A model generated the notes under the pieces. It had not been told where the DNA came from and made no database searches. It worked only from the letters and a program-made list of their open reading frames with translations. 64,000 bases of DNA, taken from positions 124,001 to 188,000 of the forward strand of contig JAAYVD010000168.1 in NCBI GenBank assembly GCA_012517355.1, read 5' to 3'. Positions 32,807-61,304 of this stretch are shown piece by piece (position 1 is the stretch's first letter; every line of letters begins with the position of its first letter). Source of the stretch: Candidatus Rifleibacteriota bacterium. GTDB lineage: Bacteria > Muiribacteriota > Ozemobacteria > Ozemobacterales > Ozemobacteraceae. The translations under genes and the position numbers were made by a program.

Positions 32807-34975
32807 CTACCAGGGGTGGTTGATCAGCCGGATGTGCAGCCCCGGATTGCGGTCGAGATACTCGCGCAACCCGGCGTGGTCGATGGCATACAGGGCCACC
32901 CGGTCGCGGGCCACGAAGGTCCGCGGCTGATCGGCGGGGCCGTGGAACAGGCGGCGGACCCCGAACAAGCCCCCGCGCGACAACACCGCCAACCGCGTCC
33001 CCCCGACCATGACGTCCACCGTTCCCTCGCGGATCAGCCAGGCCTGCTGGCCGGCCTCTCCCTCCAGCGGAATCGCCTGCCCCGCCGGCACCGGCTGATC
33101 GAGGGGCTGGACGAGCCCGTGCAGCCGGGTCTGCTGCGCCGCCGTCAGGTTCCGGAAAAGGGGGTTCACCGCCAGGGTCTGTCGCACCTCGACGTTCTGG
33201 TACAGGGCGATCTGCCGCAGCAGCTGTTCGCTCTCCGTCCCCCGGATCAGGCTCAGCATCTCGGCCCGGTCGATGCACAGCACGCGGGCGGCGGTGCGCG
33301 CCACGGCGGCGGCGGTGCGGCTCTCGGCGACGAACAGGCTCTTCTCGCCAAAGTGCCCGCCCACCCCGTAGGTGGTGATCACCCGGCCGTCGAGCACGAT
33401 GTCGACCGCCCCGTTCATCACCACGAGGAAGGTGTCGCCGGGATCTCCCTTGTGGAAGAGTGCCTCGCCGGCCCGGCAGGTCCGCACCCGGGCGATCAAC
33501 AGCAGTTCCCGCGCCTTCGGCAGGGGGAGCGACTCGAACAGGTCGACGTGCGAGAAGGCATCGATGATCGCGACCGCCTCGTCGTGCCGGCCCTGGCCGT
33601 CGACCAGGGCGATGGTGTTCTGCAACCCGGTGGGAGCCAGGCGCAGGCCGCTGTCGGCCGGGATGTGGGCCGGGTTGACGTGGACGAGATACATCCGCTC
33701 GCGCACCTCCCGGGGCAGGCTGCACAGGAAGGACATCGGCGTGTGGAGCGGCGGCACGCCCGCCTCGTGGAAGATGAGGTCGCGGTCCCAAGGGAAGGCG
33801 GTCAGGAAGTCCCGGCGCTGGCGCGACAGGACGCCCTGGTCGTGCAGCCCGGCGATGAAGGCGGGATCGTTCATCGTGTCGGAACTGTAGATCATGCTCT
33901 TCCCGTGCAGGAAGGCCTGGATGCCGATGGTCGGGATGGAATGGAGCGTGTAGTGGAACTCGAAGCGGACCTCGTCGATCATCATGGTCTCGCCGATGCG
34001 CACGGGGAAGAAGGTGACCAGCTTCTGCAGCTGGCTTTCGGCCAGGCCGGTCAGGGCGGCCGACTTGCGCAGGAAACTGCGGAAGATCGTGGGCGTGGTG
34101 TAGAGGTTGACCTTCTCCTCCTGCAGGATTTTCTGCAGCGTGCCGGCGTCGTGGTCGGCGTGGCAGTGGGTCAGGATGACCTTGTCGATCCACTTGGGGC
34201 TCACCCCCAGCCGCTGCAGCGTTTCCGCCGACCCCACGGGCGGATCGACCACGATGCCGCGCCGGTTCGCCCAGATGATGATGCCCGACGTGCTGGCATC
34301 GGGATCGAACCCGTGGCCGGCCCCGAGCGTGGTGACGCCGAATCCGGGCGGCCGGAAGTCAGACCCGGGGTCGGTGGGGGCTGGGCGGGGTTCGATGAGC
34401 GGGTCGTCCTGGCGCAGCGAGGCGAGTTCCCTTCCCGCCTCGGACACTCGCAGACCGCCGTCGGCCCCGAAGCGGACCTCGTACCCGTCGAAGGCGGCCA
34501 CCCCGCCCGCGCCTGGGAGCACGAACTCGACGAGGTGGTCGAGGGTGAGGAATCCGGTCGCGGGCGGCGGCAGGCGGCGGAAAAACCCCATTTCGGCCGC
34601 CAAGTCGGGAAACCCGGGCGTGTCCGGGCCTTCCACGAACTCGTCGGCAAGGTCGATGGCCGCCGGCCCGAACAGGGCCTCCGACAGGACGGCCTCCAGG
34701 CGCGCGCGCTGGGCGGGTTCGCAGACCACCCGGGCCTTCCCCTTCCGCACGAAGAAATGGAAATAGATGGGGAACTCGATGTCGGCCACCGACACGCCGG
34801 TGGCCAGGTCGAACATCTCCCTCGGCACGATGAAGGTATGGGGAACCCCGCCCGGCCCTTTCATGGTGTCCTTGATCGTTTCTGGCGGAATGCCGAACTG
34901 GATGTTGCCCCGCGCCGTGGAGATGAGAAACCCTCCCCGCGACAGCCGGCTGAATCCGGGAGCGGTCCTGCCCAT
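32807..34975 (-). CDS. Metallo-beta-lactamase-fold hydrolase fused to two cyclic-nucleotide-binding domains
   Basis: The ATG at 34975 has GAGAGGTG close upstream. 722 residues. The first 200 are a region with no recognised domain (ISTARGNIQFGIPPETIKDT). An MBL fold spans about 205-470, with VILTHCHADHD (HxHxDH), YSSDTMND and IFHEAG for the dinuclear metal site. A cyclic-nucleotide domain near 500-600 (GEALFHKGDPGDTFLVVMNG, then GGHFGEKSLFVAESRTAAA) has the Gly-Glu and Arg expected for a phosphate-binding cassette. A second, more degenerate one lies near 620-722 (EGEAGQQAWLIREGTVDVM). MBL activity gated by a cyclic nucleotide is the obvious inference. Cytosolic; no signal peptide. Confidence 0.9.
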   Translation of the reverse strand: MGRTAPGFSRLSRGGFLISTARGNIQFGIPPETIKDTMKGPGGVPHTFIVPREMFDLATGVSVADIEFPIYFHFFVRKGKARVVCEPAQRARLEAVLSEALFGPAAIDLADEFVEGPDTPGFPDLAAEMGFFRRLPPPATGFLTLDHLVEFVLPGAGGVAAFDGYEVRFGADGGLRVSEAGRELASLRQDDPLIEPRPAPTDPGSDFRPPGFGVTTLGAGHGFDPDASTSGIIIWANRRGIVVDPPVGSAETLQRLGVSPKWIDKVILTHCHADHDAGTLQKILQEEKVNLYTTPTIFRSFLRKSAALTGLAESQLQKLVTFFPVRIGETMMIDEVRFEFHYTLHSIPTIGIQAFLHGKSMIYSSDTMNDPAFIAGLHDQGVLSRQRRDFLTAFPWDRDLIFHEAGVPPLHTPMSFLCSLPREVRERMYLVHVNPAHIPADSGLRLAPTGLQNTIALVDGQGRHDEAVAIIDAFSHVDLFESLPLPKARELLLIARVRTCRAGEALFHKGDPGDTFLVVMNGAVDIVLDGRVITTYGVGGHFGEKSLFVAESRTAAAVARTAARVLCIDRAEMLSLIRGTESEQLLRQIALYQNVEVRQTLAVNPLFRNLTAAQQTRLHGLVQPLDQPVPAGQAIPLEGEAGQQAWLIREGTVDVMVGGTRLAVLSRGGLFGVRRLFHGPADQPRTFVARDRVALYAIDHAGLREYLDRNPGLHIRLINHPW

Positions 34976-46465: not shown

Positions 46466-46481
46466 GCCCGGCCGATGCCCC

Positions 46482-46500
46482 CCCGCCATCAGGCGGGTTT
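46482..46500 (+). terminator. Short terminator hairpin
   Basis: CCCGCC-atca-GGCGGG followed by TTT, 17 bp after the small basic protein gene. Confidence 0.5.
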
Positions 46501-46551
46501 CCGGGGGAGGCCACCCCTGTCACGAACCGACATCCACACAGGAGCCAGACG

Positions 46552-49500
46552 ATGACCCCGCCCACCCTCCGCCTGCGCCGGACGGACGGAACCTTCCTGG
46601 ACATCCCGACCCTGCCTTGCGACCTTGGCCGGGAGGCGGGGTGCCGCATCCTCCTCGACGACCGGCAGGTCAGCCGGCGACATGCCCGCCTGGAGGCGGA
46701 CCCCGACGAGCCGACCGCCCTGCGGGTCACCGACCTGGGCAGTTCGAACGGCACCTACGTGAACGGGCGTCGGATCGGCGGCACGGTCACCGTGCGGCCT
46801 GGCGACGAGCTTCGGATCGGCGGCTCGACCTGGCGGCTGGAAACGCCCGCCGCGCCGGCCTTTCCCGCCGGCCAGCCGGTTCCCCTCCCCCCGACTCCAC
46901 CATCGGGCCAGTATTCCCCAGCGGCTCCCCCGGCCGGACAACCGCCAGCCGTCGCTGCCGGCCAGGCGCGGGAAGGGACGTCCGCCCCACCATCCCCACC
47001 ACTGGCTCCTGACTCCGAAACGACCGGGCAACCAGGGTCGGTCCCCAAACCGGCCCACGCCCCGCCACGGGCAAGCCCCGTCATCCCTTCCACCACCCCC
47101 TCCCCTCCCGCCGGCACCAGGCACCATCCCGCTCCACCACTGCCGCCGCCCCCGCCACCGCCACCAGTGCCCGCCTTCATCCAGGCCACACCGCCCGCTC
47201 CCCCCTCTCCTCCTCCGCCGCCGCCGGCCCCACCAACACCGCCGCCGGTCCCCACGGCAACCCCAGCCGGATCCCCTGACGCCTCGCGCGACCTTCCCCG
47301 CCAACCGCCACCACCGGTTCCTCCCGACGCCGCAACGCCCTCAGCCCACGCGCCACCTTCCCCCGCCCCCCCGCCACCACCGCCGCCAGCGACCCCGCCC
47401 GGGCCGGACGGAACCCCATCCCCCCCCCACCGCTGGTGGATCGCCGTGGGCGCCGCCCTCCTTTTGGTCGTGGTTTCCCTGGCCTGGTCCCGATGGGCCG
47501 GGCGGCGGCCGGACAACGGCCCCCGCCCTGGGCCCATCGTCGATCTCGCCAGCCAGGCGGTGGGCGACAGCACCACCGGCCAGGTGGTGGCCTGGAACGA
47601 CCGGATCACCGTCGCCCTGCCCCCCGGCTCCGTGACCGGCAACGGCACCCTGGTCATCGGCGGCCTGACCACCCCCACCGGCCCGTTGCCGCCCGGGGCG
47701 GTGGAACTGGCCTCGGCCAGCCTGCGTCTCGACGGCCCCGCCAGCCTCACCGCCCCGGTGGCGGTGGCCTTCCGGTTCGATCCCGCCCTGGTGGAACCCG
47801 CCCCTGGAGCTTCCGCCCCGGCCGTCGTCGGCTGCTGCTGGGACGAGACCCTCGGCATGTGGCTGGCGGCACCCACCGCCTTGGATGCCACGCGCGGAGT
47901 CGCCGTGGTGATGACCCGACACTTCTCGATCTGGCGCGTGCTGTATCTGGGCAAGGGCTACCTGATCCGCGACACCACCCACTTCCGGGTGGTCCACGCC
48001 GAGAACCACGACATGATCCTGGGCAGCCGGCTGGAAGAGGCTCCCCAGGCCGCTTTCACCACCGGCACGATGCTGGAGAACGCCTGGCGGTCCTACGACC
48101 GTGCCGGCTTCACCATGCCGGGCACCTCGTGGGACCAGGCCCTGCAGAAGCTGCTCGTCGCCATCCCCAACCTCGACCTCACCCCCGGCAAGACCTGGAT
48201 CTTCCTCAACTGCCGCGACTGGTGGGTCACCAGCGAGAAGATGGATTCCACCTCCCCCTACCGCTCCGGCACGACCGGCGCCATCTATCTCAAGGGGAGC
48301 TACGACGACCTCGACGAGCTGCGCGGGGTGACCGCCCACGAGTACTTTCACGCCGTCCAGAACGAGTACATGAACATCTACTCCCTCGGCCTCCGCTATT
48401 GGTGGATCGACGCCACCGCCGACTACGCCGCCGAGAAGGTGGCCTGGGAAGGCAAGATCGCGGGCATGGGGGAAGGGATCTCCGCCACCTGGCTCGACAC
48501 CCCGCTCTGGGCGGCCGACGGGCTCAAGGAATACCGCACCGCCCATTTCATCGATTTCGTGCTGGGGCCGACCGGCGCCGGGCAGTTCCCCGCCCTGTGG
48601 CGGGCCACCATGGAAGGGGTGTGGCTGCAGAGCGTCATCACCCGGCTGGACGCCCACCTGCAACAGACCACCAGCCGCCCGCTTGGCTCCTGGTTCCGCG
48701 AGTTCGCCGCCTTCCTGCTGTTCTCGAGCGCCACCCCCTGCCGCGGCGAACGCCGCTTCCTGGGCTCCCCCACCGCCGCCCAGCGGCTCGCCGACCTGCC
48801 CGCCGACCAGGTCGCCCGGCCCCTGGCGCTGAGCACCACCTCCGGCCTCTGCGCCGCGGTGACCGGCATCCGCCCGGCGTTTCGCACAGGACAGGCCTTC
48901 CGACGCCTGCGGGTGAGCTGGCTGGAGGCCAGCCGCCCCGAGATGACCGTCGACCTCGTCCGGCTGCCCGGCAACCGGGAGGTTCCGCGGGTGCGTCCCG
49001 AACCGCTGGCCGGGGTCGGCGCCAGCGCCACCGTCACCCTGCGTCCGGGCGACGTCCTGTGGGTGCTGGCCTGCAACACCGCCCTGACCGAGGGCGGCGG
49101 GCAGGTCAGCCTCAACGTCCTCGACGAGTCGGTCGACCTGGGGCTCGAGGGAACCCCCGACCGGGCGAAGCTGACGAAGGTGACCTTCACCGCGACCGCC
49201 CGCGGCGTTCCCCCCGGGGCCGGACCCCTGACCTGCCGCTGGCGGTTCGACGACGGCGATTTCGGCCCGTCGCAGCCGGTGCCCGTCCCGACCGCCCCCG
49301 CCATGACCTGGGCCCGGGAAGAGGAGTTTCCGGCCATCACCGCGCACACCGCGGGCCTGCAGCTGCTGGCCGGCTCCGAACTGCTGGCCGAGACCGCCTG
49401 CGAGGTCAAGACCTGCTTCGTGCAGCTGGAACCCCGCACCGTCCTGGCCAGCCCCGGCCAGGAGGTCGCCTTCCGCGCCGTGGTCGCCAACCCGCCGCCG

Positions 49501-50547
49501 GATCCCCTCTTCCGATGGTCGTTCGGCGAGGGCCAGGCCGGCCAGGAGACCACCGTCCCCGAGGCCCGCCACGCCTGGCCCGCCCCCGGCGAGTTCCCCG
49601 TCCAGGTCGTCCTCCTGGCCGCCAGCCGCCGGGACGCCCCCCTCGACCGGTCGGCCGGCACGGCCCGCATCGAGGCAGGTTCCCCGCCCCCCGCCGCCCC
49701 GGCCGGGAACCTCGACCCTCCGCCCGGCTGCCTCAACCACGACTACTCCCGGCTGACCCGCCATGACGAACCAACCGACGTGTATTACACCAACGCCAGT
49801 GGAGTCCGGGAGGGCTGGGAAATTCGCTGGCACGACGAGGGCCGGTCACGCAAGGCGTTCGAAGGGTGCTGGCACGAGGGCGAGCAGCAGTGCCGGCACC
49901 GGCACTGGTATCCCGACGGCCAGCCGGAGTTCGAGGCGACCTTCGACCAGGGCGTCAACGAGGGGCCCTGCCGCCGGTGGTATGCGAACGGCCAGCTGAA
50001 CGAGGAGGCCACCTACCACCTGGGCGCGGTCAGCGGCCGGATCACCACCTGGTATGACACCGGCAAGGTCATGAGCGAGACCGATGTCGAGACCGGCCCC
50101 GAAGAGATCCAGGAGCCGGTCTTCGCCGACCGGAAGCCCCACCGGGTGCTGACCGTCATCGGCGGCAAGACCGTCAACTACTACCCGGACGGCAAGAAGA
50201 AGGAACAACGGATCACCCGCCACAACCAGTACCAGGGTCAACATTTGTACTGGAACGAAAAAGGCGTGCTGATCCGCGAGGAGAACTATCGCGACGGCAA
50301 GCTCGACGGCCCGTTCCGCACCTTCTACCCCGACTCCGGCAACCTCTGCTCCGAATACGTCTACGGGAACGGGCTTCGGCAGGGTCTGTACCGCCTCCTG
50401 CGCGACAACGGCACCGTCAAGATCAAGGGCCAGTACCGGGACAACCACATGGTCGGCGAATGGCTCCTGTTCACCCCCGACGGCAAGGTCAAGGACCGGA
50501 TGGTCGACTGGGAGGGGGAGAACCTCGACTGGGCCATGGCCCCCTGA
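46552..50547 (+). CDS. FHA-TM-HExxH metallopeptidase-PKD-MORN multidomain protein
   Basis: 1331 residues from the ATG at 46552 (GGAG 8 bases upstream). The FHA domain spans 1-97: CDLGREAGCRILLDDRQVSR, RHARLE and LGSSNGTYVNGRRIG give the phosphothreonine-binding residues. A Pro-rich linker (about 98-295) leads to a membrane span near 300-320, then a ZU5-like beta region (ITVALPPGSVTGNGTLVIGG). A peptidase-like domain has HEYFH at 596-600 and, 19 residues on, WWIDATADYAAE (Asp620, Glu628 as third-ligand candidates). Two PKD-like segments follow (about 860-1030). At least seven MORN/YwqK-type repeats fill about 1075-1320 (WYPDGQPEFEATFDQGVNEG, WYANGQLNEEATY). A cytoplasmic phospho-reader would be linked to an extracytoplasmic protease; activity is inferred. 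Confidence 0.88.
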   Translation: MTPPTLRLRRTDGTFLDIPTLPCDLGREAGCRILLDDRQVSRRHARLEADPDEPTALRVTDLGSSNGTYVNGRRIGGTVTVRPGDELRIGGSTWRLETPAAPAFPAGQPVPLPPTPPSGQYSPAAPPAGQPPAVAAGQAREGTSAPPSPPLAPDSETTGQPGSVPKPAHAPPRASPVIPSTTPSPPAGTRHHPAPPLPPPPPPPPVPAFIQATPPAPPSPPPPPPAPPTPPPVPTATPAGSPDASRDLPRQPPPPVPPDAATPSAHAPPSPAPPPPPPPATPPGPDGTPSPPHRWWIAVGAALLLVVVSLAWSRWAGRRPDNGPRPGPIVDLASQAVGDSTTGQVVAWNDRITVALPPGSVTGNGTLVIGGLTTPTGPLPPGAVELASASLRLDGPASLTAPVAVAFRFDPALVEPAPGASAPAVVGCCWDETLGMWLAAPTALDATRGVAVVMTRHFSIWRVLYLGKGYLIRDTTHFRVVHAENHDMILGSRLEEAPQAAFTTGTMLENAWRSYDRAGFTMPGTSWDQALQKLLVAIPNLDLTPGKTWIFLNCRDWWVTSEKMDSTSPYRSGTTGAIYLKGSYDDLDELRGVTAHEYFHAVQNEYMNIYSLGLRYWWIDATADYAAEKVAWEGKIAGMGEGISATWLDTPLWAADGLKEYRTAHFIDFVLGPTGAGQFPALWRATMEGVWLQSVITRLDAHLQQTTSRPLGSWFREFAAFLLFSSATPCRGERRFLGSPTAAQRLADLPADQVARPLALSTTSGLCAAVTGIRPAFRTGQAFRRLRVSWLEASRPEMTVDLVRLPGNREVPRVRPEPLAGVGASATVTLRPGDVLWVLACNTALTEGGGQVSLNVLDESVDLGLEGTPDRAKLTKVTFTATARGVPPGAGPLTCRWRFDDGDFGPSQPVPVPTAPAMTWAREEEFPAITAHTAGLQLLAGSELLAETACEVKTCFVQLEPRTVLASPGQEVAFRAVVANPPPDPLFRWSFGEGQAGQETTVPEARHAWPAPGEFPVQVVLLAASRRDAPLDRSAGTARIEAGSPPPAAPAGNLDPPPGCLNHDYSRLTRHDEPTDVYYTNASGVREGWEIRWHDEGRSRKAFEGCWHEGEQQCRHRHWYPDGQPEFEATFDQGVNEGPCRRWYANGQLNEEATYHLGAVSGRITTWYDTGKVMSETDVETGPEEIQEPVFADRKPHRVLTVIGGKTVNYYPDGKKKEQRITRHNQYQGQHLYWNEKGVLIREENYRDGKLDGPFRTFYPDSGNLCSEYVYGNGLRQGLYRLLRDNGTVKIKGQYRDNHMVGEWLLFTPDGKVKDRMVDWEGENLDWAMAP

Positions 50548-51748: not shown

Positions 51749-52822
51749 TCAGAGGTCCCCTTTGCGCAGGGGGTTCAACAACGGCTGGGCAACCTTCGCC
51801 GACTGCCCGGCGACCTGGAGGGAGAACATCGGCGAATCCAGGGGCAGCCGGAAGGTGATCTTCCCCGGCAGCCCGTCCTTGAACTCGGCCGCCTTCCGCC
51901 CCTTGGCATCGAAGATCACGGCCCCGGGAGCCACCGTCTGGTCGTCGGTGACCATCCCGGCCAGGATGTCCTGGAGGTTCTCCAGGTCGGAAGCCAGCTT
52001 GAAATCCCACAGGTTGACATTCGGGGCGATATCCAGACCCCGCAGGCTGACCAGCGCCTCGGGCTGGACATCGGGCCCGACCCCGATGGCGACGAACTTC
52101 AGGAAGTTCTTGGCCTTCCCCTTGATGAGGACCGCCAGGTTGCTCGAATAACTCTGCAGTTCCTCGAGGTCGGCGAACCGGCCGTCGGTCAGGACCACGA
52201 CCAGCGTCCGGGGAACCTCGGAAGACCGGGCCACCAGGTGCTCCACCAGGGGCAGCAGCCGCGACGACGCGCCAAAGGAAAAGGATTCACCCCCGGGAAC
52301 CGAAACCTTTCCACACTTGGCCCGGGGGATCCTCCCCAGGTCCACCCAGGTGTCACCGGGGCGGCATCCCCAGTAGACGAGGGAGGGCGCTTCGCCGTCA
52401 TCGACGCGGGCGGCCAAAAACTCCAAAAACCCTTGGACCAAGGGCTCGATGCGGTTCGGGGTCCATTTCAGAAGGCCACGCCCCACGGCATCCTGGCAGG
52501 CCTCCGCGCAGTACAGGCGCACCAACCGGCCCCCGCGGTTCTCTTCGCTGACCCAGCCCTGCTGATGATACCGTTCCTGGACGGGGAGCGGCACATCGCC
52601 GGTCAAGGCCCGCCCCCACAGAGGGCGCACGGATTCACTCGCCTCGACGGCCAGGCAGGTGCTCCACCTTTCCGTGGGGGGCAGCAGGAACCGGCATTCC
52701 ACCTCGATCTCCTTGCCCGTCTTGTGGAAGGAGACGCTTTGGAAGGGGCGCTCGAGGAGGTCGCCGGCGACCGTGACCTCCTGCCCCTCGCGGATCCCGC
52801 TGATGGAGGATTTCAGGGCCAT
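51749..52822 (-). CDS. vWA-like (TerF/TerY-type) domain protein
   Basis: The 357-residue product starts at ATG 52822, inside the end of the upstream stalk-domain gene (10-bp overlap). The N-terminal 130 residues are a beta-rich region (GQEVTVAGDLLERPFQSVSF). From about 130 a von Willebrand A-type fold follows (EPLVQGFLEFLAAR, SLVYWGCRPGDTWVDLGRIP, RTLVVVLTDGRFADLEELQS, NFLKFVAIGVG), with the order of strands seen in TerF-like proteins. The DxSxS metal site is not intact. The final 70 residues form a small beta domain (GKITFRLPLDSPMFSLQV). Role unknown; vWA proteins usually mediate protein complexes. Confidence 0.65.
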   Translation of the reverse strand: MALKSSISGIREGQEVTVAGDLLERPFQSVSFHKTGKEIEVECRFLLPPTERWSTCLAVEASESVRPLWGRALTGDVPLPVQERYHQQGWVSEENRGGRLVRLYCAEACQDAVGRGLLKWTPNRIEPLVQGFLEFLAARVDDGEAPSLVYWGCRPGDTWVDLGRIPRAKCGKVSVPGGESFSFGASSRLLPLVEHLVARSSEVPRTLVVVLTDGRFADLEELQSYSSNLAVLIKGKAKNFLKFVAIGVGPDVQPEALVSLRGLDIAPNVNLWDFKLASDLENLQDILAGMVTDDQTVAPGAVIFDAKGRKAAEFKDGLPGKITFRLPLDSPMFSLQVAGQSAKVAQPLLNPLRKGDL

Positions 52823-54549
52823 GCCGCCCGCCCTTCCCAGAGGGACGCCAGACGGATGCGGGCTTCGTGGGGAAGCCGGTCGCCGTCCAGGAGGGTGATC
52901 CGCACATTGAGGACCGTCTCCAGGGTGCGCACGGGCACGAACAGTCGCTGCCGGTGCAACATGGGGGGCGGCCGCCCTCGCAGAGGGGCCCCGTTCCAGA
53001 CCAGCCGCCCCCGGCCAGGGATGGCGGTCAGGGACTGGGATTCTCCTTTGCTGCAGACTGCGCCGGCGTCCATGCCTTTCCAGCGGACGGACCAACCATC
53101 GGCTTCCAGGACAGGCCGCAGCCCGATCAACACTCGCCCGTGACGCCGGATGACCGGAACCCCGGACAATTCGCGAGGGGGGACGGCGGCAGGAGCGGCC
53201 GCCAGGCGGATGACCACCGCCCCGGATGTCACGCCCCCATCGACCACGGTCAGACGGCCGCCCAGCACCCTGTTCAACAGGTCGACGGGCACGAACAACT
53301 GGCCGCCCAGGGTCAATACCGGCCGGCTGGAGAGAACGACCCGCTTCCCGGCGAACCGGGCCTGTTTCCTGCCGGGGACGATCTCCAGGGTTTCCCCGGT
53401 CGGGCTCTGACAGGTCACCCCCTGCCGCATCCCCGTCCAGGAAACCTTCCATCCGTCAGCCTGGAGGATTTTCCGCAGGCCAAGGTAGGTCCGGGATCCA
53501 CGACGGCGGACAGGAACACCCTGCACCTCGGAAGAGTCGGCGTAGCCGGCCCCCACCGAGAAAGCCGGCACCGGCTTCACCGGTTCGGCGGCCGCCACCT
53601 GGACAGGCGCGACGGCAGCGGGCTGGACAGGCTTCGCGGGTTTCGCGGGGACCACCTTGTTAGGCTCGACCACCGCAGGCCTGGCTGGCGTCACCGGTTC
53701 GGCGACGGCCACCTTGACAGGCTCGACGGCGGCAGGTTTGGCCTGCTTCGCGGGCTCCGCGGGGACCTCCTTGGGGGGCTCGACCGTCGCAGGTTTGGCA
53801 GGCGTCACCGGTTCGGCGACGGCCACCTTGACAGGCTCGACGGCCGCGGGCTTGACCTGATTCGCGGGCTCCGCGGGGACCACTTTGGCGGGCTCGACCA
53901 CCGCAGGACTGGCTGGCGTCACGGGGCCCGAAGCGGGGAGAGACGCCTGAACGACCTCAGACCGCGAGCCTTCGGTTCCTGGAGAAGGGCGGTAGCCCAA
54001 TGACCGGATTTCCATGGACGGGAAGGGATTTTCCCCGGACCGGTCGGCTGGCGGAGTATAGCGTTCGGGCAGGACGCGCTGCTCTGGAGGACGCTGGGCG
54101 AGCCTGAGAGCCTCGGCCGACGGTTCGATCGGCGGCAGGGCCGGGGCCGATGATGATGCCGGCCCGGCGGAGGGGACGGCCCCGATGGTCATGGCCCGAT
54201 CGGGGCCAGGGCCCGGGGTGACCACACCGTTGGCTGGAGATCCGGGTTCAGGGGGGGGAGTCCCGGGCAAGGTGATGGGGGACGAAGCCGCGGTCGCTTC
54301 TTCCATGGTGGCGGGCACTTGCTGGGATCTCTGGGAGGAAAGGAACCAGACCACCGGAATGAGCAGGCACAGGAGAACCGCCACGACCGGGAGGAGGGGA
54401 AGGGTCTTTTGGGGAGGCTGGGCGGGCACCTGGACAGGCTTGGAAACCGCAGCGGGAGGCTGGGGAGGAACGTATATCTGACCGGTCAAGATCACCGGAA
54501 TCGGTTCCTTGTTCCAGGGCTGCTCTGAACGCCGGGTCTTCTCGGCCAC
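52813..54549 (-). CDS. Single-pass membrane protein with repeat stalk and two copper-amine-oxidase N-terminal-like domains
   Basis: 578 residues from ATG 54549. A cytoplasmic N-terminus of about 45 residues is followed by a membrane segment (LPLLPVVAVLLCLLIPVVWF), a Pro/Ser-rich spacer and a Val/Glu/Pro/Lys repeat stalk (about 210-325) made of three 38-residue units. Two copies of a domain of about 85 residues follow: VPVRRRGSRTYLGLRKILQA ... LFVPVDLLNRVLGGRL, and VPVIRRHGRVLIGLRPVLEA ... LFVPVRTLETVLNVRI. These match the copper amine oxidase N1 (stalk) pattern, common in cell-surface proteins without any oxidase. Coupled by overlap to the vWA gene, suggesting a joint envelope role. Confidence 0.8.
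   Translation of the reverse strand: MAEKTRRSEQPWNKEPIPVILTGQIYVPPQPPAAVSKPVQVPAQPPQKTLPLLPVVAVLLCLLIPVVWFLSSQRSQQVPATMEEATAASSPITLPGTPPPEPGSPANGVVTPGPGPDRAMTIGAVPSAGPASSSAPALPPIEPSAEALRLAQRPPEQRVLPERYTPPADRSGENPFPSMEIRSLGYRPSPGTEGSRSEVVQASLPASGPVTPASPAVVEPAKVVPAEPANQVKPAAVEPVKVAVAEPVTPAKPATVEPPKEVPAEPAKQAKPAAVEPVKVAVAEPVTPARPAVVEPNKVVPAKPAKPVQPAAVAPVQVAAAEPVKPVPAFSVGAGYADSSEVQGVPVRRRGSRTYLGLRKILQADGWKVSWTGMRQGVTCQSPTGETLEIVPGRKQARFAGKRVVLSSRPVLTLGGQLFVPVDLLNRVLGGRLTVVDGGVTSGAVVIRLAAAPAAVPPRELSGVPVIRRHGRVLIGLRPVLEADGWSVRWKGMDAGAVCSKGESQSLTAIPGRGRLVWNGAPLRGRPPPMLHRQRLFVPVRTLETVLNVRITLLDGDRLPHEARIRLASLWEGRAAWP
53579..53920 (-). repeat. Exact-period 114-bp tandem repeat, three units, within the stalk gene
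   Basis: Units begin at 53579, 53693 and 53807 (ACCGGTTCGGCG). Each encodes 38 residues of the type EPVTPAKPATVEPPKEVPAE. The units differ by scattered substitutions but have no indels. Confidence 0.9.
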
Positions 54550-57797: not shown

Positions 57798-60700
57798 ATG
57801 CTCGAAACCCTCGAATTCTTCTCCTCACTCACCCCGTCCGAGATCCAGGAGATCGCCCGGATCGCCAAACGCATGGAATTCCGGCGCGGCGAAACCATCT
57901 TCCAGCAGGGAGACGTCTCGCGGGACCTGTACGCCATCGAGAGCGGCCTGGTCGAGATCTCCACCAAGAGCGTCCTGGCCGAGACCAAGGTCCTGGCCCA
58001 GTTGAAGAACGGTGACCTGTTTGGCGAGATGGCCCTCTTCGACGCCCATTCGGTGCGGTCGGCCTCGGCCAGGGCCCTCCAGAACTCCATCGTCATCGTC
58101 ATCCCCGGCACCGAGTTCGAACGGCTGCTGAAGGAAAAGCCCACCATCAGCTTCAAGCTCCTGGGCACCCTCAGCAAGCGCCTGAAGGACGCCAACCAGC
58201 GACCCCCAGGAGGCGCCCCCGGCGCCCCCGCCGGTCCCGGCAAGATCATCACCGTGGCCGGACCCCGCAACGGAGTGGGCAAGACCACCTTCGCCGTGAC
58301 CGCCGCCCAGATCCTCGACCAGGAGGCCGGCGCCCGCACCCTGTTCCTCGACCTCGATCTGCCCTTCGCCGATGCCACCTACGCCCTCGGGGTCCATTCC
58401 GTCCGCACCGTCATCGAGTTCTCCGGCGTCGCCCGCGGCGATTACCCCGATTTCGACGCCATCCGCAAGCACCTCACCCACGTCGGCACCAACCTGTTCT
58501 GCCTCCCCGGCCCGGTCAACATCATCGACGGGGAAAAGCTCGACCCCCAGTCCCTCGTGGTCTCCATCCGCCTGTTGCAGCGGTTCTTCGAATACATCGT
58601 GATCGACACCGACTCCCGCATCGACGAGGTGTTCCTGGCCGCCCTCGACCTCTCCGACCGCATCTATTTCGTGGTCGATGCCCAGCACCCCTATGCCATC
58701 AAGAGCAGCTCCCGCTACTTCTACGGCCTGGGCAAGCTCCACCTGGCCGAAAGCCGCATCTCCGTCCTGCTGGCGCGCTCCGCCCAACCGGCCGACCGCA
58801 AAGCCCTGGCCAACCTCCTCCGGCTGCCGGTCCAGGCCCAGCTGCCCGTCATCCCCGATCACCAGCCAGTCTACGGCAAAGGAATGCTGCCCGCCCAGGC
58901 CGGCCATCCCTTCTGCCACACCGTCCGCCAGTTGCTGCAGGACTTCTTCCCCGTCGAGTTCCGGGCCAGCCGGCAACAGGGGTTCCTCTCCCGCCTGTTC
59001 GCTCCCGACGGAGCCCCCGCGGCCGCCGCCATCGCCGACAAGACCGCCCCCCTGGCCGAGGTGGCCGAGAACCGGGTCGGCTTCCGCGACGCCAACTTCC
59101 GGGCCCTGCTCCGCTACATCCGCACCGGCCTGGTGGCCGGCCAACTGGCCGAGGCCCGCCGCGCCATCCTGCAACTGGTCGAGTTGAGCGGCACCTCGGC
59201 CCCCGTCTTCCAGACCTACGGCGAGATCCTGATGCAGGAAGGGAAGGCCTCCGAAGCCATCGATGCCTTCCACAAGGCCGTCCAGCTCGACCCCGACTGC
59301 CACCTGGCCCTCGGGTTCGCCGGCATCCTCTCCCTCGACCGCGGCCTGTTCCAGCAGGCGGTCGCCCTCCTCCAACGCAAGATCGACAAGCACCCGAACT
59401 GGCCGGACCTGCGCCGGGACCTGGGCGAACTGTTCCTGCGCAACGACCGGCCGGAGGAAGCCCTCTCCACCCTGCAGGAAGCTCTCCGCATCAACCCCCG
59501 CTACGAGGATGCCCGGGTCCGCCTGGCCGAGGCCTACTTCCGCCTCGGTCGGGGCGAGGAGGCCATCCGCGAGTTGCTGGCCATGTCCCAGAAGTCGGCT
59601 CCCGCCTATTACCTGCTCGGCCGCTGCTTCCAGTCGGTCGACCGGTTCCCGGAAGCCCTCGAAGCCCTGCGCATCGTCCAGCGCATCTGCCCGGACTACC
59701 GCGACACCAACCAGCGCATCGACGAGCTGCAGGACTACTTCGTCAAGCTGAACAACCTCATCTCCATCCACCAGAAGATCCGCCGCGAACAGCCCACCTA
59801 CCTCGACGTGCGGCTCAAGCTCGCCCAGCTCCTGGCCTCGGCCGGCCGCCGCTCAGAGGCCGAAGCCGAGTGTCGGGATGCCCTTCTGATGAAACCCGGG
59901 TTCAAGGCCGCCCAGGACCAGCTCGACCGCCTGCTGAACCTCCCCGTCTACGAGATCGACCACCCCGAAGTCCCCTCTCCCACCCGGACCTGCCGCGGGG
60001 TGGTCTGCACCGGCTTCCACATCGGACTCAACCTGGGAGACCAGGCCCTGGAACCCGCCGTTCAGGAGCGCCTGTCCAAGCACCTGTTCTGGTTCCGCAA
60101 CATCCGCACCGGCAAGACCTGGGAGTTCAAGATCCCCCCCACCCTCTCTCCCCACATCGATCTGAGTGCCACCCCCATCTGTCCGGTGACCGAAAACGAT
60201 GTCATCCTGGTCAAGCTGCTCAATCCCCAGACCGGCGAGGTGCTCTTCTCCGACGCCCACCTGATCGACACCCCACGCGAGCCCCACTGCCAGATCAAGC
60301 TCGACTTCTCCGGACCCCTGCGGCAGATCATCGACCGCCTGCCTCTCATCACCCCGGTCCGGGTCTTCCTGCTCGGCGTGCCACGCGAAACCCTCTTCCC
60401 GAAAGGGAAGGACCACGACGTCCTGACGCCGCCCCTGCTGGTCAACCCCCGCAACGGCGCCCGGGCCGAAGGCCGGGTCGATCCCGACCAGCCCGGGCAA
60501 TTCTGCTTCGTCCTGTCCGCACCCACCGAGGAAGACGTCGTCAAGATCGGAGACCTGCTGGAAGTCCACCTGGCCAAGGAACCCGGCAAGGGAACCATGG
60601 CCCTCCAGGTGCGGGTTGGCCCTGACGACCTCGTCAGCTGCTCACGACTCCTCGCCCCCGAGGAAGGGGAGAAGCCCCTGCCCTCCGAGGCGCCCTCCCC

Positions 60701-61304
60701 GACCCCCGACCGACCACCCTGGCCGGCCGGCTCCCGCGTCCCCACAACCATCCCACCCGCCACGCCACCCGCCGCCACACACCCACCCGTCCCACCGCCC
60801 GCACCCACGGCCGACAACCCCGCCCCGTCAACGACTCACCCCACCGCGCGCCCCCCGGCCACCCCACCAGCCTCTGTCGCGCCCCAGCCTCCGGCTTTCG
60901 CCGCGCCGGCACCACCAGCCACCCCACCAGTCCCTGTCGAGCCCCATCCTCCGGCCACGCCTCCGGCCCACGCCTCGCCCCAGCCTCCGGCCACGCCACC
61001 GGCTCCTCCAGCGCCCCAGCCTCCGGTCACGCCACCGGCTCCCGCAGAGCCGCCATCGCCGACCAACCCTTCCACCCCGACGGCCAGACCTCTGCCGACC
61101 ACCCCAACGCCCCCGGCCACCCCACCCGCCCCCGCCACCCCGCTGCCGCCGGCCAAGCCTTCGGCTCCCGGCAGCCCCCCACCGCCCAAGCCTCCAGCCA
61201 AGCCGACCGGCAGCCCCCCGCCGACCACGCCCCCGTCAACACCGACCGGTGGCCTCCCGCCCGCCCCCCCGCCCCGGCCGCCAACCAAGCCTCCGGCCCG
61301 CTGA
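57798..61304 (+). CDS. cNMP-binding domain / ParA-MinD-type ATPase / TPR fusion with Pro-rich tail
   Basis: 1168 residues from ATG 57798 (AGGAGG 7 bases upstream). Residues 1-135 are a cyclic-nucleotide-binding domain (GETIFQQGDVSRDLYAIESG, LFGEMALFDAHSVRSASARA with the Gly-Glu and Arg of the binding cassette). About 150-410 is a SIMIBI P-loop ATPase of CpaE/MinD type: Walker A GPRNGVGKTTFAV, LFLDLDLPFADATYALGV, and YIVIDTDSRIDEVFLAALDL. About 440-690 are TPR repeats (QTYGEILMQEGKASEAIDAF, RRDLGELFLRNDRPEEALST). Next come 250 residues of unknown beta-rich sequence with PilZ-like hints only, then a Pro/Ala/Thr tail of about 180 residues. ATPases of this class place pili or other polar machines; the prepilin cluster downstream fits that. 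cNMP control is inferred. Confidence 0.9.
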   Translation: MLETLEFFSSLTPSEIQEIARIAKRMEFRRGETIFQQGDVSRDLYAIESGLVEISTKSVLAETKVLAQLKNGDLFGEMALFDAHSVRSASARALQNSIVIVIPGTEFERLLKEKPTISFKLLGTLSKRLKDANQRPPGGAPGAPAGPGKIITVAGPRNGVGKTTFAVTAAQILDQEAGARTLFLDLDLPFADATYALGVHSVRTVIEFSGVARGDYPDFDAIRKHLTHVGTNLFCLPGPVNIIDGEKLDPQSLVVSIRLLQRFFEYIVIDTDSRIDEVFLAALDLSDRIYFVVDAQHPYAIKSSSRYFYGLGKLHLAESRISVLLARSAQPADRKALANLLRLPVQAQLPVIPDHQPVYGKGMLPAQAGHPFCHTVRQLLQDFFPVEFRASRQQGFLSRLFAPDGAPAAAAIADKTAPLAEVAENRVGFRDANFRALLRYIRTGLVAGQLAEARRAILQLVELSGTSAPVFQTYGEILMQEGKASEAIDAFHKAVQLDPDCHLALGFAGILSLDRGLFQQAVALLQRKIDKHPNWPDLRRDLGELFLRNDRPEEALSTLQEALRINPRYEDARVRLAEAYFRLGRGEEAIRELLAMSQKSAPAYYLLGRCFQSVDRFPEALEALRIVQRICPDYRDTNQRIDELQDYFVKLNNLISIHQKIRREQPTYLDVRLKLAQLLASAGRRSEAEAECRDALLMKPGFKAAQDQLDRLLNLPVYEIDHPEVPSPTRTCRGVVCTGFHIGLNLGDQALEPAVQERLSKHLFWFRNIRTGKTWEFKIPPTLSPHIDLSATPICPVTENDVILVKLLNPQTGEVLFSDAHLIDTPREPHCQIKLDFSGPLRQIIDRLPLITPVRVFLLGVPRETLFPKGKDHDVLTPPLLVNPRNGARAEGRVDPDQPGQFCFVLSAPTEEDVVKIGDLLEVHLAKEPGKGTMALQVRVGPDDLVSCSRLLAPEEGEKPLPSEAPSPTPDRPPWPAGSRVPTTIPPATPPAATHPPVPPPAPTADNPAPSTTHPTARPPATPPASVAPQPPAFAAPAPPATPPVPVEPHPPATPPAHASPQPPATPPAPPAPQPPVTPPAPAEPPSPTNPSTPTARPLPTTPTPPATPPAPATPLPPAKPSAPGSPPPPKPPAKPTGSPPPTTPPSTPTGGLPPAPPPRPPTKPPAR

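What the first reader, a model, noticed from the sequence alone, without database searches (positions are those of the whole stretch)
46552..50547. One protein links an FHA phospho-reader to an HExxH peptidase and a MORN array across the membrane
The 1331-residue chain carries FHA, Pro-rich linker, membrane span, ZU5-like region, HEYFH with WWIDATADYAAE 19 residues later, PKD-like folds and at least seven MORN/YwqK repeats. I know of no described system with this order. It would allow a cytoplasmic phospho-signal to affect an extracytoplasmic protease, or the reverse. The third zinc ligand is unclear: Asp620 replaces the Glu expected in the WxxEG form.
Basis: partly seen in the sequence, partly recalled or inferred. 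Interest (0 to 1): 0.78.

Follow-up and report, generated by a model that had tools for sequence, protein, structure and literature searches.

The report
Self-cleaving membrane protease with phospho-reading tail
A bacterial gene encodes one long protein whose inside-the-cell part should recognise phosphorylated proteins and whose outside part is a zinc protease attached through a domain that probably cuts itself; the same outer part recurs in many unrelated bacteria with different inner parts, and I found no description of this family.

Summary
One well-formed gene (46552-50547, Riflebacteria MAG) encodes FHA, Pro-rich linker, one membrane span, ZU5 domain, HExxH peptidase, beta-sandwich, two PKD-like domains and nine MORN_2 units. 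AlphaFold2 on a 22-sequence alignment gives a confident ectodomain (pLDDT 86). Foldseek matches its first part to ankyrin ZU5 and its centre to M1-type gluzincins. HE..H is invariant in 22/22 sequences. The disputed Asp620 sits exactly where most relatives have Glu (17 Glu, 5 Asp, nothing else), 20 residues after the second His, with an invariant acid at +4, as in thermolysin's ExxxD. The protease reading therefore stands, although activity is untested. The architecture recurs: FHA-TM-ZU5-HExxH-PKD in an Acidobacteriota MAG, and zinc ribbons or GYF_2 in place of FHA in Bacillota, Chloroflexota and Acidobacteriota (one also with MORN_2). This is the self-cleavage motif of PIDD, Nup98 and GPS domains, and it lies between two strands. 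Best reading: a membrane-anchored, self-cleaving extracytoplasmic gluzincin whose inner module positions it by binding phosphoproteins. Self-cleavage and phospho-control are inferred; topology and fold have good indirect support.

The parts
46540..46544 (+). Shine-Dalgarno AGGAG, 7 nt before the ATG at 46552
   Evidence: sequence read
46552..50547 (+). whole gene, 1331 aa: FHA - Pro-rich - TM - ZU5 - gluzincin - beta-sandwich - PKD x2 - MORN_2 x9
46624..46821 (+). FHA domain, residues 25-90, with G26-R27, S41-R-R-H44 and N66-G67 present
   Evidence: PF00498 2.1e-18; residues
46852..47430 (+). Pro-rich, probably disordered cytoplasmic linker, residues 101-293
   Evidence: composition
47434..47490 (+). 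single membrane span, residues 295-313
   Evidence: hydropathy and comparison with relatives
47536..48000 (+). ZU5-like beta-sandwich, residues 329-483
   Evidence: AlphaFold2, Foldseek to ankyrin ZU5, family profile against PDB
47920..47928 (+). predicted self-cleavage motif H457-F458-S459, in the turn between two strands
   Evidence: H 21/22, F/L 22/22, S/T/C 22/22 in the alignment; strands; motif in PMC3210808
48007..48723 (+). gluzincin-type zinc peptidase domain, residues 486-724
48337..48351 (+). HEYFH zinc motif, residues 596-600
   Evidence: H596, E597, H600 invariant in 22/22
48409..48423 (+). D620 (third ligand position, D/E only) to D624 (invariant acid), thermolysin-like ExxxD spacing
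48778..49131 (+). C-terminal beta-sandwich of the peptidase unit, residues 743-860
   Evidence: AlphaFold2
49132..49677 (+). two PKD-like beta-sandwiches, residues 861-1042 (Pfam PKD 964-1020)
49810..50511 (+). nine MORN_2 (YwqK-type) units, residues about 1087-1320
   Evidence: PF07661; unit list

Best explanation
A membrane-anchored extracytoplasmic zinc peptidase of the gluzincin type that is split by its own ZU5 domain. Steps: (1) The N-terminal FHA stays in the cytoplasm and the single span anchors the chain. (2) Outside the membrane the ZU5 domain folds and cuts itself between F458 and S459, leaving an anchor piece (FHA-linker-TM-ZU5) and a protease piece (peptidase-sandwich-PKD-MORN) that stay associated without a covalent bond, as in PIDD and adhesion GPCRs. 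(3) The peptidase cuts envelope or extracellular proteins, with H596, H600 and D620 holding zinc and E597 as base; PKD and MORN units reach for or bind substrate. (4) FHA binds Thr-phosphorylated proteins made by the cell's many Ser/Thr kinases and so places or clusters the enzyme at certain sites. Supported here: anatomy, fold class, ligand conservation, recurrence. Inferred: self-cleavage (strong motif evidence), catalysis, phospho-dependent placement, any release of the protease.
For: Ectodomain model pLDDT 86, pTM 0.87; Foldseek matches ankyrin ZU5 (prob 1.00) and M1 gluzincins PfA-M1, IRAP, ERAP1. HE..H 22/22, acid at 620 22/22, acid at 624 22/22. H[FL][STC] in 21/22 with S, T and C alternating at the nucleophile position, and invariant W437; the motif lies between strands 450-455 and 460-466. 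A profile of the ZU5 region run against the whole PDB returned only five weak hits, including ankyrin ZU5 (E 0.1) and the GPS motif of adhesion GPCR F1 with HLS over HLT (E 0.48). PIDD self-cleaves at HF/S directly after ZU5, with S/T/C as nucleophile (PMC3210808); ZU5 autopeptidases are predicted in bacterial surface proteins (PMC3482391). Same layout with other cytoplasmic heads: L073 zinc ribbon+FHA, L081/L084/L085/L087/L088/L092 zinc ribbons, L077 GYF_2. Relatives' spans have positive charges on the N side, and several relatives start with signal or lipoprotein peptides. Host has 22 Pkinase and 10 FHA matches.
Against: No activity, cleavage or binding was measured. This protein's own span has more positive charge on its outer side (1 against 4), which by itself would suggest the opposite orientation. 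D for E at the third ligand may lower activity. L072 lacks the motif His, and the distant L033/L055 subfamily has HNS/HNG, so self-cleavage is not universal. The ZU5 assignment is by fold; Pfam ZU5 matches only one relative (0.0019). The GPCR and ankyrin sequence hits are not significant on their own. Genus-mates G001 and G002 lack the gene, so it is an accessory function.
Confidence: 0.57

Rival explanations
1. Same protein, but the ZU5 domain is only structural (as in ankyrin) and the chain stays intact: a tethered ectopeptidase positioned by FHA.
For: The best structural matches are ankyrin ZU5 domains, which to my knowledge do not self-cleave; L072 lacks the motif His.
Against: H, F/L and S/T/C are conserved in 21-22 of 22 across many phyla, with only nucleophile-type residues at +1, in the position where PIDD is cut.
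Confidence: 0.27
2. A pseudo-peptidase: the HExxH domain binds rather than cuts, and the protein is a phospho-regulated adhesin with PKD and MORN binding modules.
For: D instead of E at the third ligand; long adhesion-type C-terminus.
Against: H596, E597, H600 and both acids are kept in all 22; D recurs in four relatives from other phyla; paralogues in the same genome keep the full E form.
Confidence: 0.1
3. Inside-out or outside-in signalling device: phospho-binding by FHA changes protease activity conformationally across the membrane, or substrate sensing outside alters FHA clustering.
For: FHA, span and protease are on one chain; cytoplasmic heads are swapped in relatives, as in sensor families.
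Against: About 190 Pro-rich residues and one span between FHA and ectodomain make conformational coupling unlikely; clustering remains possible.
Confidence: 0.2
4. Assembly chimera joining an FHA gene to a protease gene in the low-complexity linker.
For: The genome is a MAG-like assembly of 184 contigs, and the linker is repetitive and C-rich.
Against: Open frame throughout with host-like GC3 on both sides; an independent Acidobacteriota contig has the same FHA-TM-ZU5-HExxH join.
Confidence: 0.04

Closest known systems
NCBIfam NF045524 MXAN_6640 family putative metalloprotease
   Same: HExxH ... W-x-x-E-[AG]-x-A peptidase core; 20 of 22 members match it weakly, best 1.2e-12
   Different: scores far below the curated cut-off of 140 bits (29 bits here); adds the ZU5 domain, span and cytoplasmic heads
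Pfam DUF6055 (linked to MEROPS M106 in PMC11241649)
   Same: 7 of 22 members match, best 7e-12
   Different: no match for this protein itself; described so far only as an uncharacterised domain of bacteria and fungi
ZU5-UPA autoproteolytic proteins (PIDD, NLRP1, CARD8) and GPS/GAIN domains of adhesion GPCRs
   Same: ZU5-type fold and an HF/S or HL/S-T motif at its C-terminal end
   Different: here the released or associated C-terminal part is a secreted metallopeptidase, not a death/CARD domain or GPCR; cleavage untested
Bacterial ZU5 surface proteins and polymorphic toxins (PMC3482391)
   Same: ZU5 in extracellular bacterial proteins joined to enzymes
   Different: no membrane anchor with FHA, zinc ribbon or GYF_2 head was named in the passages I read; no toxin system features here
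Membrane FHA proteins such as GltG and FhaB/FipA (NCBIfam hits)
   Same: cytoplasmic FHA joined to a larger chain
   Different: no extracytoplasmic peptidase; the matches here cover the FHA (and, for GltG, adjoining linker) only

Membership tests
Gluzincin (zinc peptidase, MA clan) | HExxH with a downstream acidic third ligand in a thermolysin/M1-like fold | tested here: met
   HE..H and D/E at 620 in 22/22; Foldseek to M1 enzymes. Ligand is D here, E in most relatives; zinc binding itself not testable.
MXAN_6640 family (NF045524) | score above the curated cut-off (140 bits) | tested here: not met
   26-32 bits
DUF6055 / MEROPS M106 | Pfam gathering score 27 bits | tested here: not met
   no match for this protein; one relative (L073) above the cut-off at 43.7 bits
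ZU5 superfamily | ZU5 beta-sandwich fold | tested here: met
   ankyrin ZU5 structures, TM-score by target 0.61-0.64, prob 1.00
ZU5 superfamily | Pfam ZU5 sequence model (PF00791) | tested here: not met
   no match for this protein; one relative at 0.0019
Autoproteolytic ZU5/GPS domains | H[FL]-[STC] at the C-terminal end, in a turn before the last strand | tested here: met
Autoproteolytic ZU5/GPS domains | actual cleavage | not testable with these tools
   needs protein chemistry
Phosphothreonine-binding FHA | FHA fold with conserved G-R, S-x-x-H and N | tested here: met
   PF00498 2.1e-18; residues
Type II (N-in) membrane protein | positive charges on the N-terminal side of the span | tested here: inconclusive
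   this protein 1 against 4; relatives clearly N-in

The most novel reading that the evidence does not exclude
An undescribed, widespread family of bacterial membrane protease-receptors: a ZU5/GPS-type self-cleaving domain separates a cytoplasmic adaptor anchor (FHA, zinc ribbon or GYF_2) from an extracytoplasmic gluzincin that can be shed or pulled off, a bacterial counterpart of adhesion-GPCR or PIDD self-cleavage, with phospho-dependent placement in the FHA forms.
Probability: 0.42. Interest if true: 0.78.

Novelty: new variant of a known kind. Interest (0 to 1): 0.63.

Why it matters
If right, many bacterial phyla share a one-chain device that ties an outside protease to an inside adaptor through a self-cutting joint of the kind best known from animal apoptosis and adhesion receptors. 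It gives a bacterial setting for studying ZU5/GPS self-cleavage, and it makes the proposal that surface proteolysis in these bacteria is placed by Ser/Thr phosphorylation directly testable.

Tried and rejected
A first PDB sequence search used the wrong reading frame, and a Pfam call failed on a frame error; both were redone. A single-sequence scan of genome contigs found nothing; a two-sequence alignment found 31 loci. The PDB has no sequence homologue of the ectodomain. Tblastn of a relative's ectodomain against plasmids and phages found nothing. Structural matches to a clostridial enterotoxin fragment and phage spike proteins were taken as generic beta-sandwich likeness, not kinship. The C-terminal model was too weak to use for the MORN part (pLDDT 60). 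The idea that D620 is a degenerate ligand was rejected on the alignment. The tree could not place this protein (no supported fork), so neither horizontal transfer nor grouping of the FHA forms is claimed.

Full report
Gene and anatomy. The ORF 46552-50547 (1331 aa) begins 7 nt after AGGAG and has host-like third-position GC over nearly its whole length. Pfam finds FHA, PKD and MORN_2; NCBIfam finds the MXAN_6640 HExxH model at 1.3e-7 on the isolated region, below its curated cut-off. I count nine MORN_2 units. The host is a 7.1 Mb, 184-contig genome. The same-family genome G005 holds the contig that GenBank names Candidatus Riflebacteria (G005:C38 and JAHISQ010000130.1, both 31,867 bp with the same 625-aa ORF), so the window is from Riflebacteria.

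How common. MXAN_6640-like HExxH proteins are abundant in this phylum: 8 matches in this genome and 43 of 57 genomes searched. The specific ectodomain here is rare. Among 40 phylum genomes only G005 has a full-length relative, a 625-aa protein without FHA, and the two genus-mates lack it. In a profile search of 382 genomes only this genome and G005 gave full-length matches. A pattern scan of 84,980 species genomes, far from exhaustive, gave 31 relatives, of which about 20 share ZU5 plus peptidase, from Vulcanimicrobiota/Eremiobacterota, Omnitrophota, Acidobacteriota, Bacillota, Chloroflexota, Planctomycetota, Pseudomonadota, Myxococcota and Riflebacteria. Partial synteny remains in genus-mate G002: downstream neighbours are kept on one contig, while the upstream 123-aa gene lies on another and no protease gene is found.

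Recurring architecture. L073 (Acidobacteriota) is zinc ribbon - FHA - Pro-rich - TM - ZU5 - HELFH - PKD. L081 (Ruminiclostridium sp. MAG) is zinc ribbons - TM - Big_5 - ZU5 - HELFH - PKD - MORN_2 (the Pfam match to MORN_2 is weak; units are visible by eye). L084, L085, L087, L088 and L092 have zinc ribbons and a span; L077 has GYF_2 and a span; L070 has a short tail and a span. L072, L075, L078 and L080 look like lipoproteins and L083 and L086 like secreted proteins. The same ectodomain therefore sits outside the cytoplasm, and the cytoplasmic head is exchangeable.

Peptidase. In the 22-sequence alignment H596, E597 and H600 are invariant. Position 620 is E in 17 and D in 5 (this protein, L070, L071, L084, L087), and position 624 is D or E in all. 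The spacing H600 to D620 (20) and the acid at +4 equal thermolysin's H146-E166-D170 (my knowledge of thermolysin). The model (pLDDT 86, pTM 0.87) matches M1 aminopeptidases and IMPa by Foldseek, and viral enhancins in the viral library. I could not read coordinates, so ligand distances are not measured.

ZU5 and self-cleavage. Model residues 8-162 (protein 329-483) match ankyrin ZU5 structures. The most conserved feature of this domain besides W437 and P357 is T-x-H-[LF]-[STC]-x-[WFY]. In PIDD, self-cleavage occurs at HF/S directly after ZU5; the nucleophile may be S, T or C, and fragments often stay associated (PMC3210808). Cleavage is needed for NLRP1 activation (PMC8081665). Zhang et al. 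2012 unite ZU5 and GPS and predict ZU5 processing in bacterial surface proteins (PMC3482391). An unbiased PDB profile search gave five weak hits, among them ankyrin ZU5 and the GPS motif of adhesion GPCR F1 with HLS over HLT. I take self-cleavage as likely but unproven.

FHA. The FHA keeps the residues I know to contact phosphothreonine, and the genome has 22 kinase-domain matches and 10 FHA matches. The long Pro-rich linker favours recruitment over conformational signalling; this is inference.

Caveats. The protein's own span flanks contradict the N-in rule; orientation rests on relatives and on FHA, PKD and peptidase context. The tree places this protein on a long, unsupported branch. Literature searches over open PMC papers found no description of this architecture, but most subscription papers are not held.

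Verdict.

Noticed in passing
L033:382-3375 (+) and L055:1-2844 (+): Riflebacterial TM-ZU5-like-HExxH proteins (about 950-1000 aa) in which the self-cleavage motif reads HNS or HNG, apparently a non-cleaving sister subfamily.
   Followed up: partly
G000:C26, L005:1-2884 (+): A chain of up to 1811 codons in the same genome joins what looks like a cyclase-type region, a Clp-N-like region, FHA and a Ser/Thr kinase; L003 joins FHA, Pro-rich linker and a cyclase-like domain; L002 joins FHA, a zinc ribbon and membrane spans. FHA plus low-complexity linker is a reused module here.
   Followed up: no
57798-61304 (+): 1168-aa protein with cNMP-binding domain, MinD-like AAA_31 domain, TPR repeats and a Pro-rich tail; 74% identical over its first 820 residues in genus-mate G002.
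   Followed up: partly
51749-54549 (-): Apparent pair: a protein that reads like a von Willebrand A domain by eye (no Pfam hit) and a membrane protein with two Cu_amine_oxidN1 domains; both conserved in G002.
   Followed up: no
32807-34975 (-): Metallo-beta-lactamase fold joined to two cNMP-binding domains in one 722-aa protein.
   Followed up: no
L071:3207-7634 (+): A gammaproteobacterial relative carries NHL repeats and a PKD-like tail around the ZU5-peptidase unit, with Asp at the third ligand.
   Followed up: no
46481-46502: Hairpin CCCGCC-ATCA-GGCGGG followed by TTT between the upstream 123-aa gene and this gene; possible terminator separating the two.
   Followed up: no
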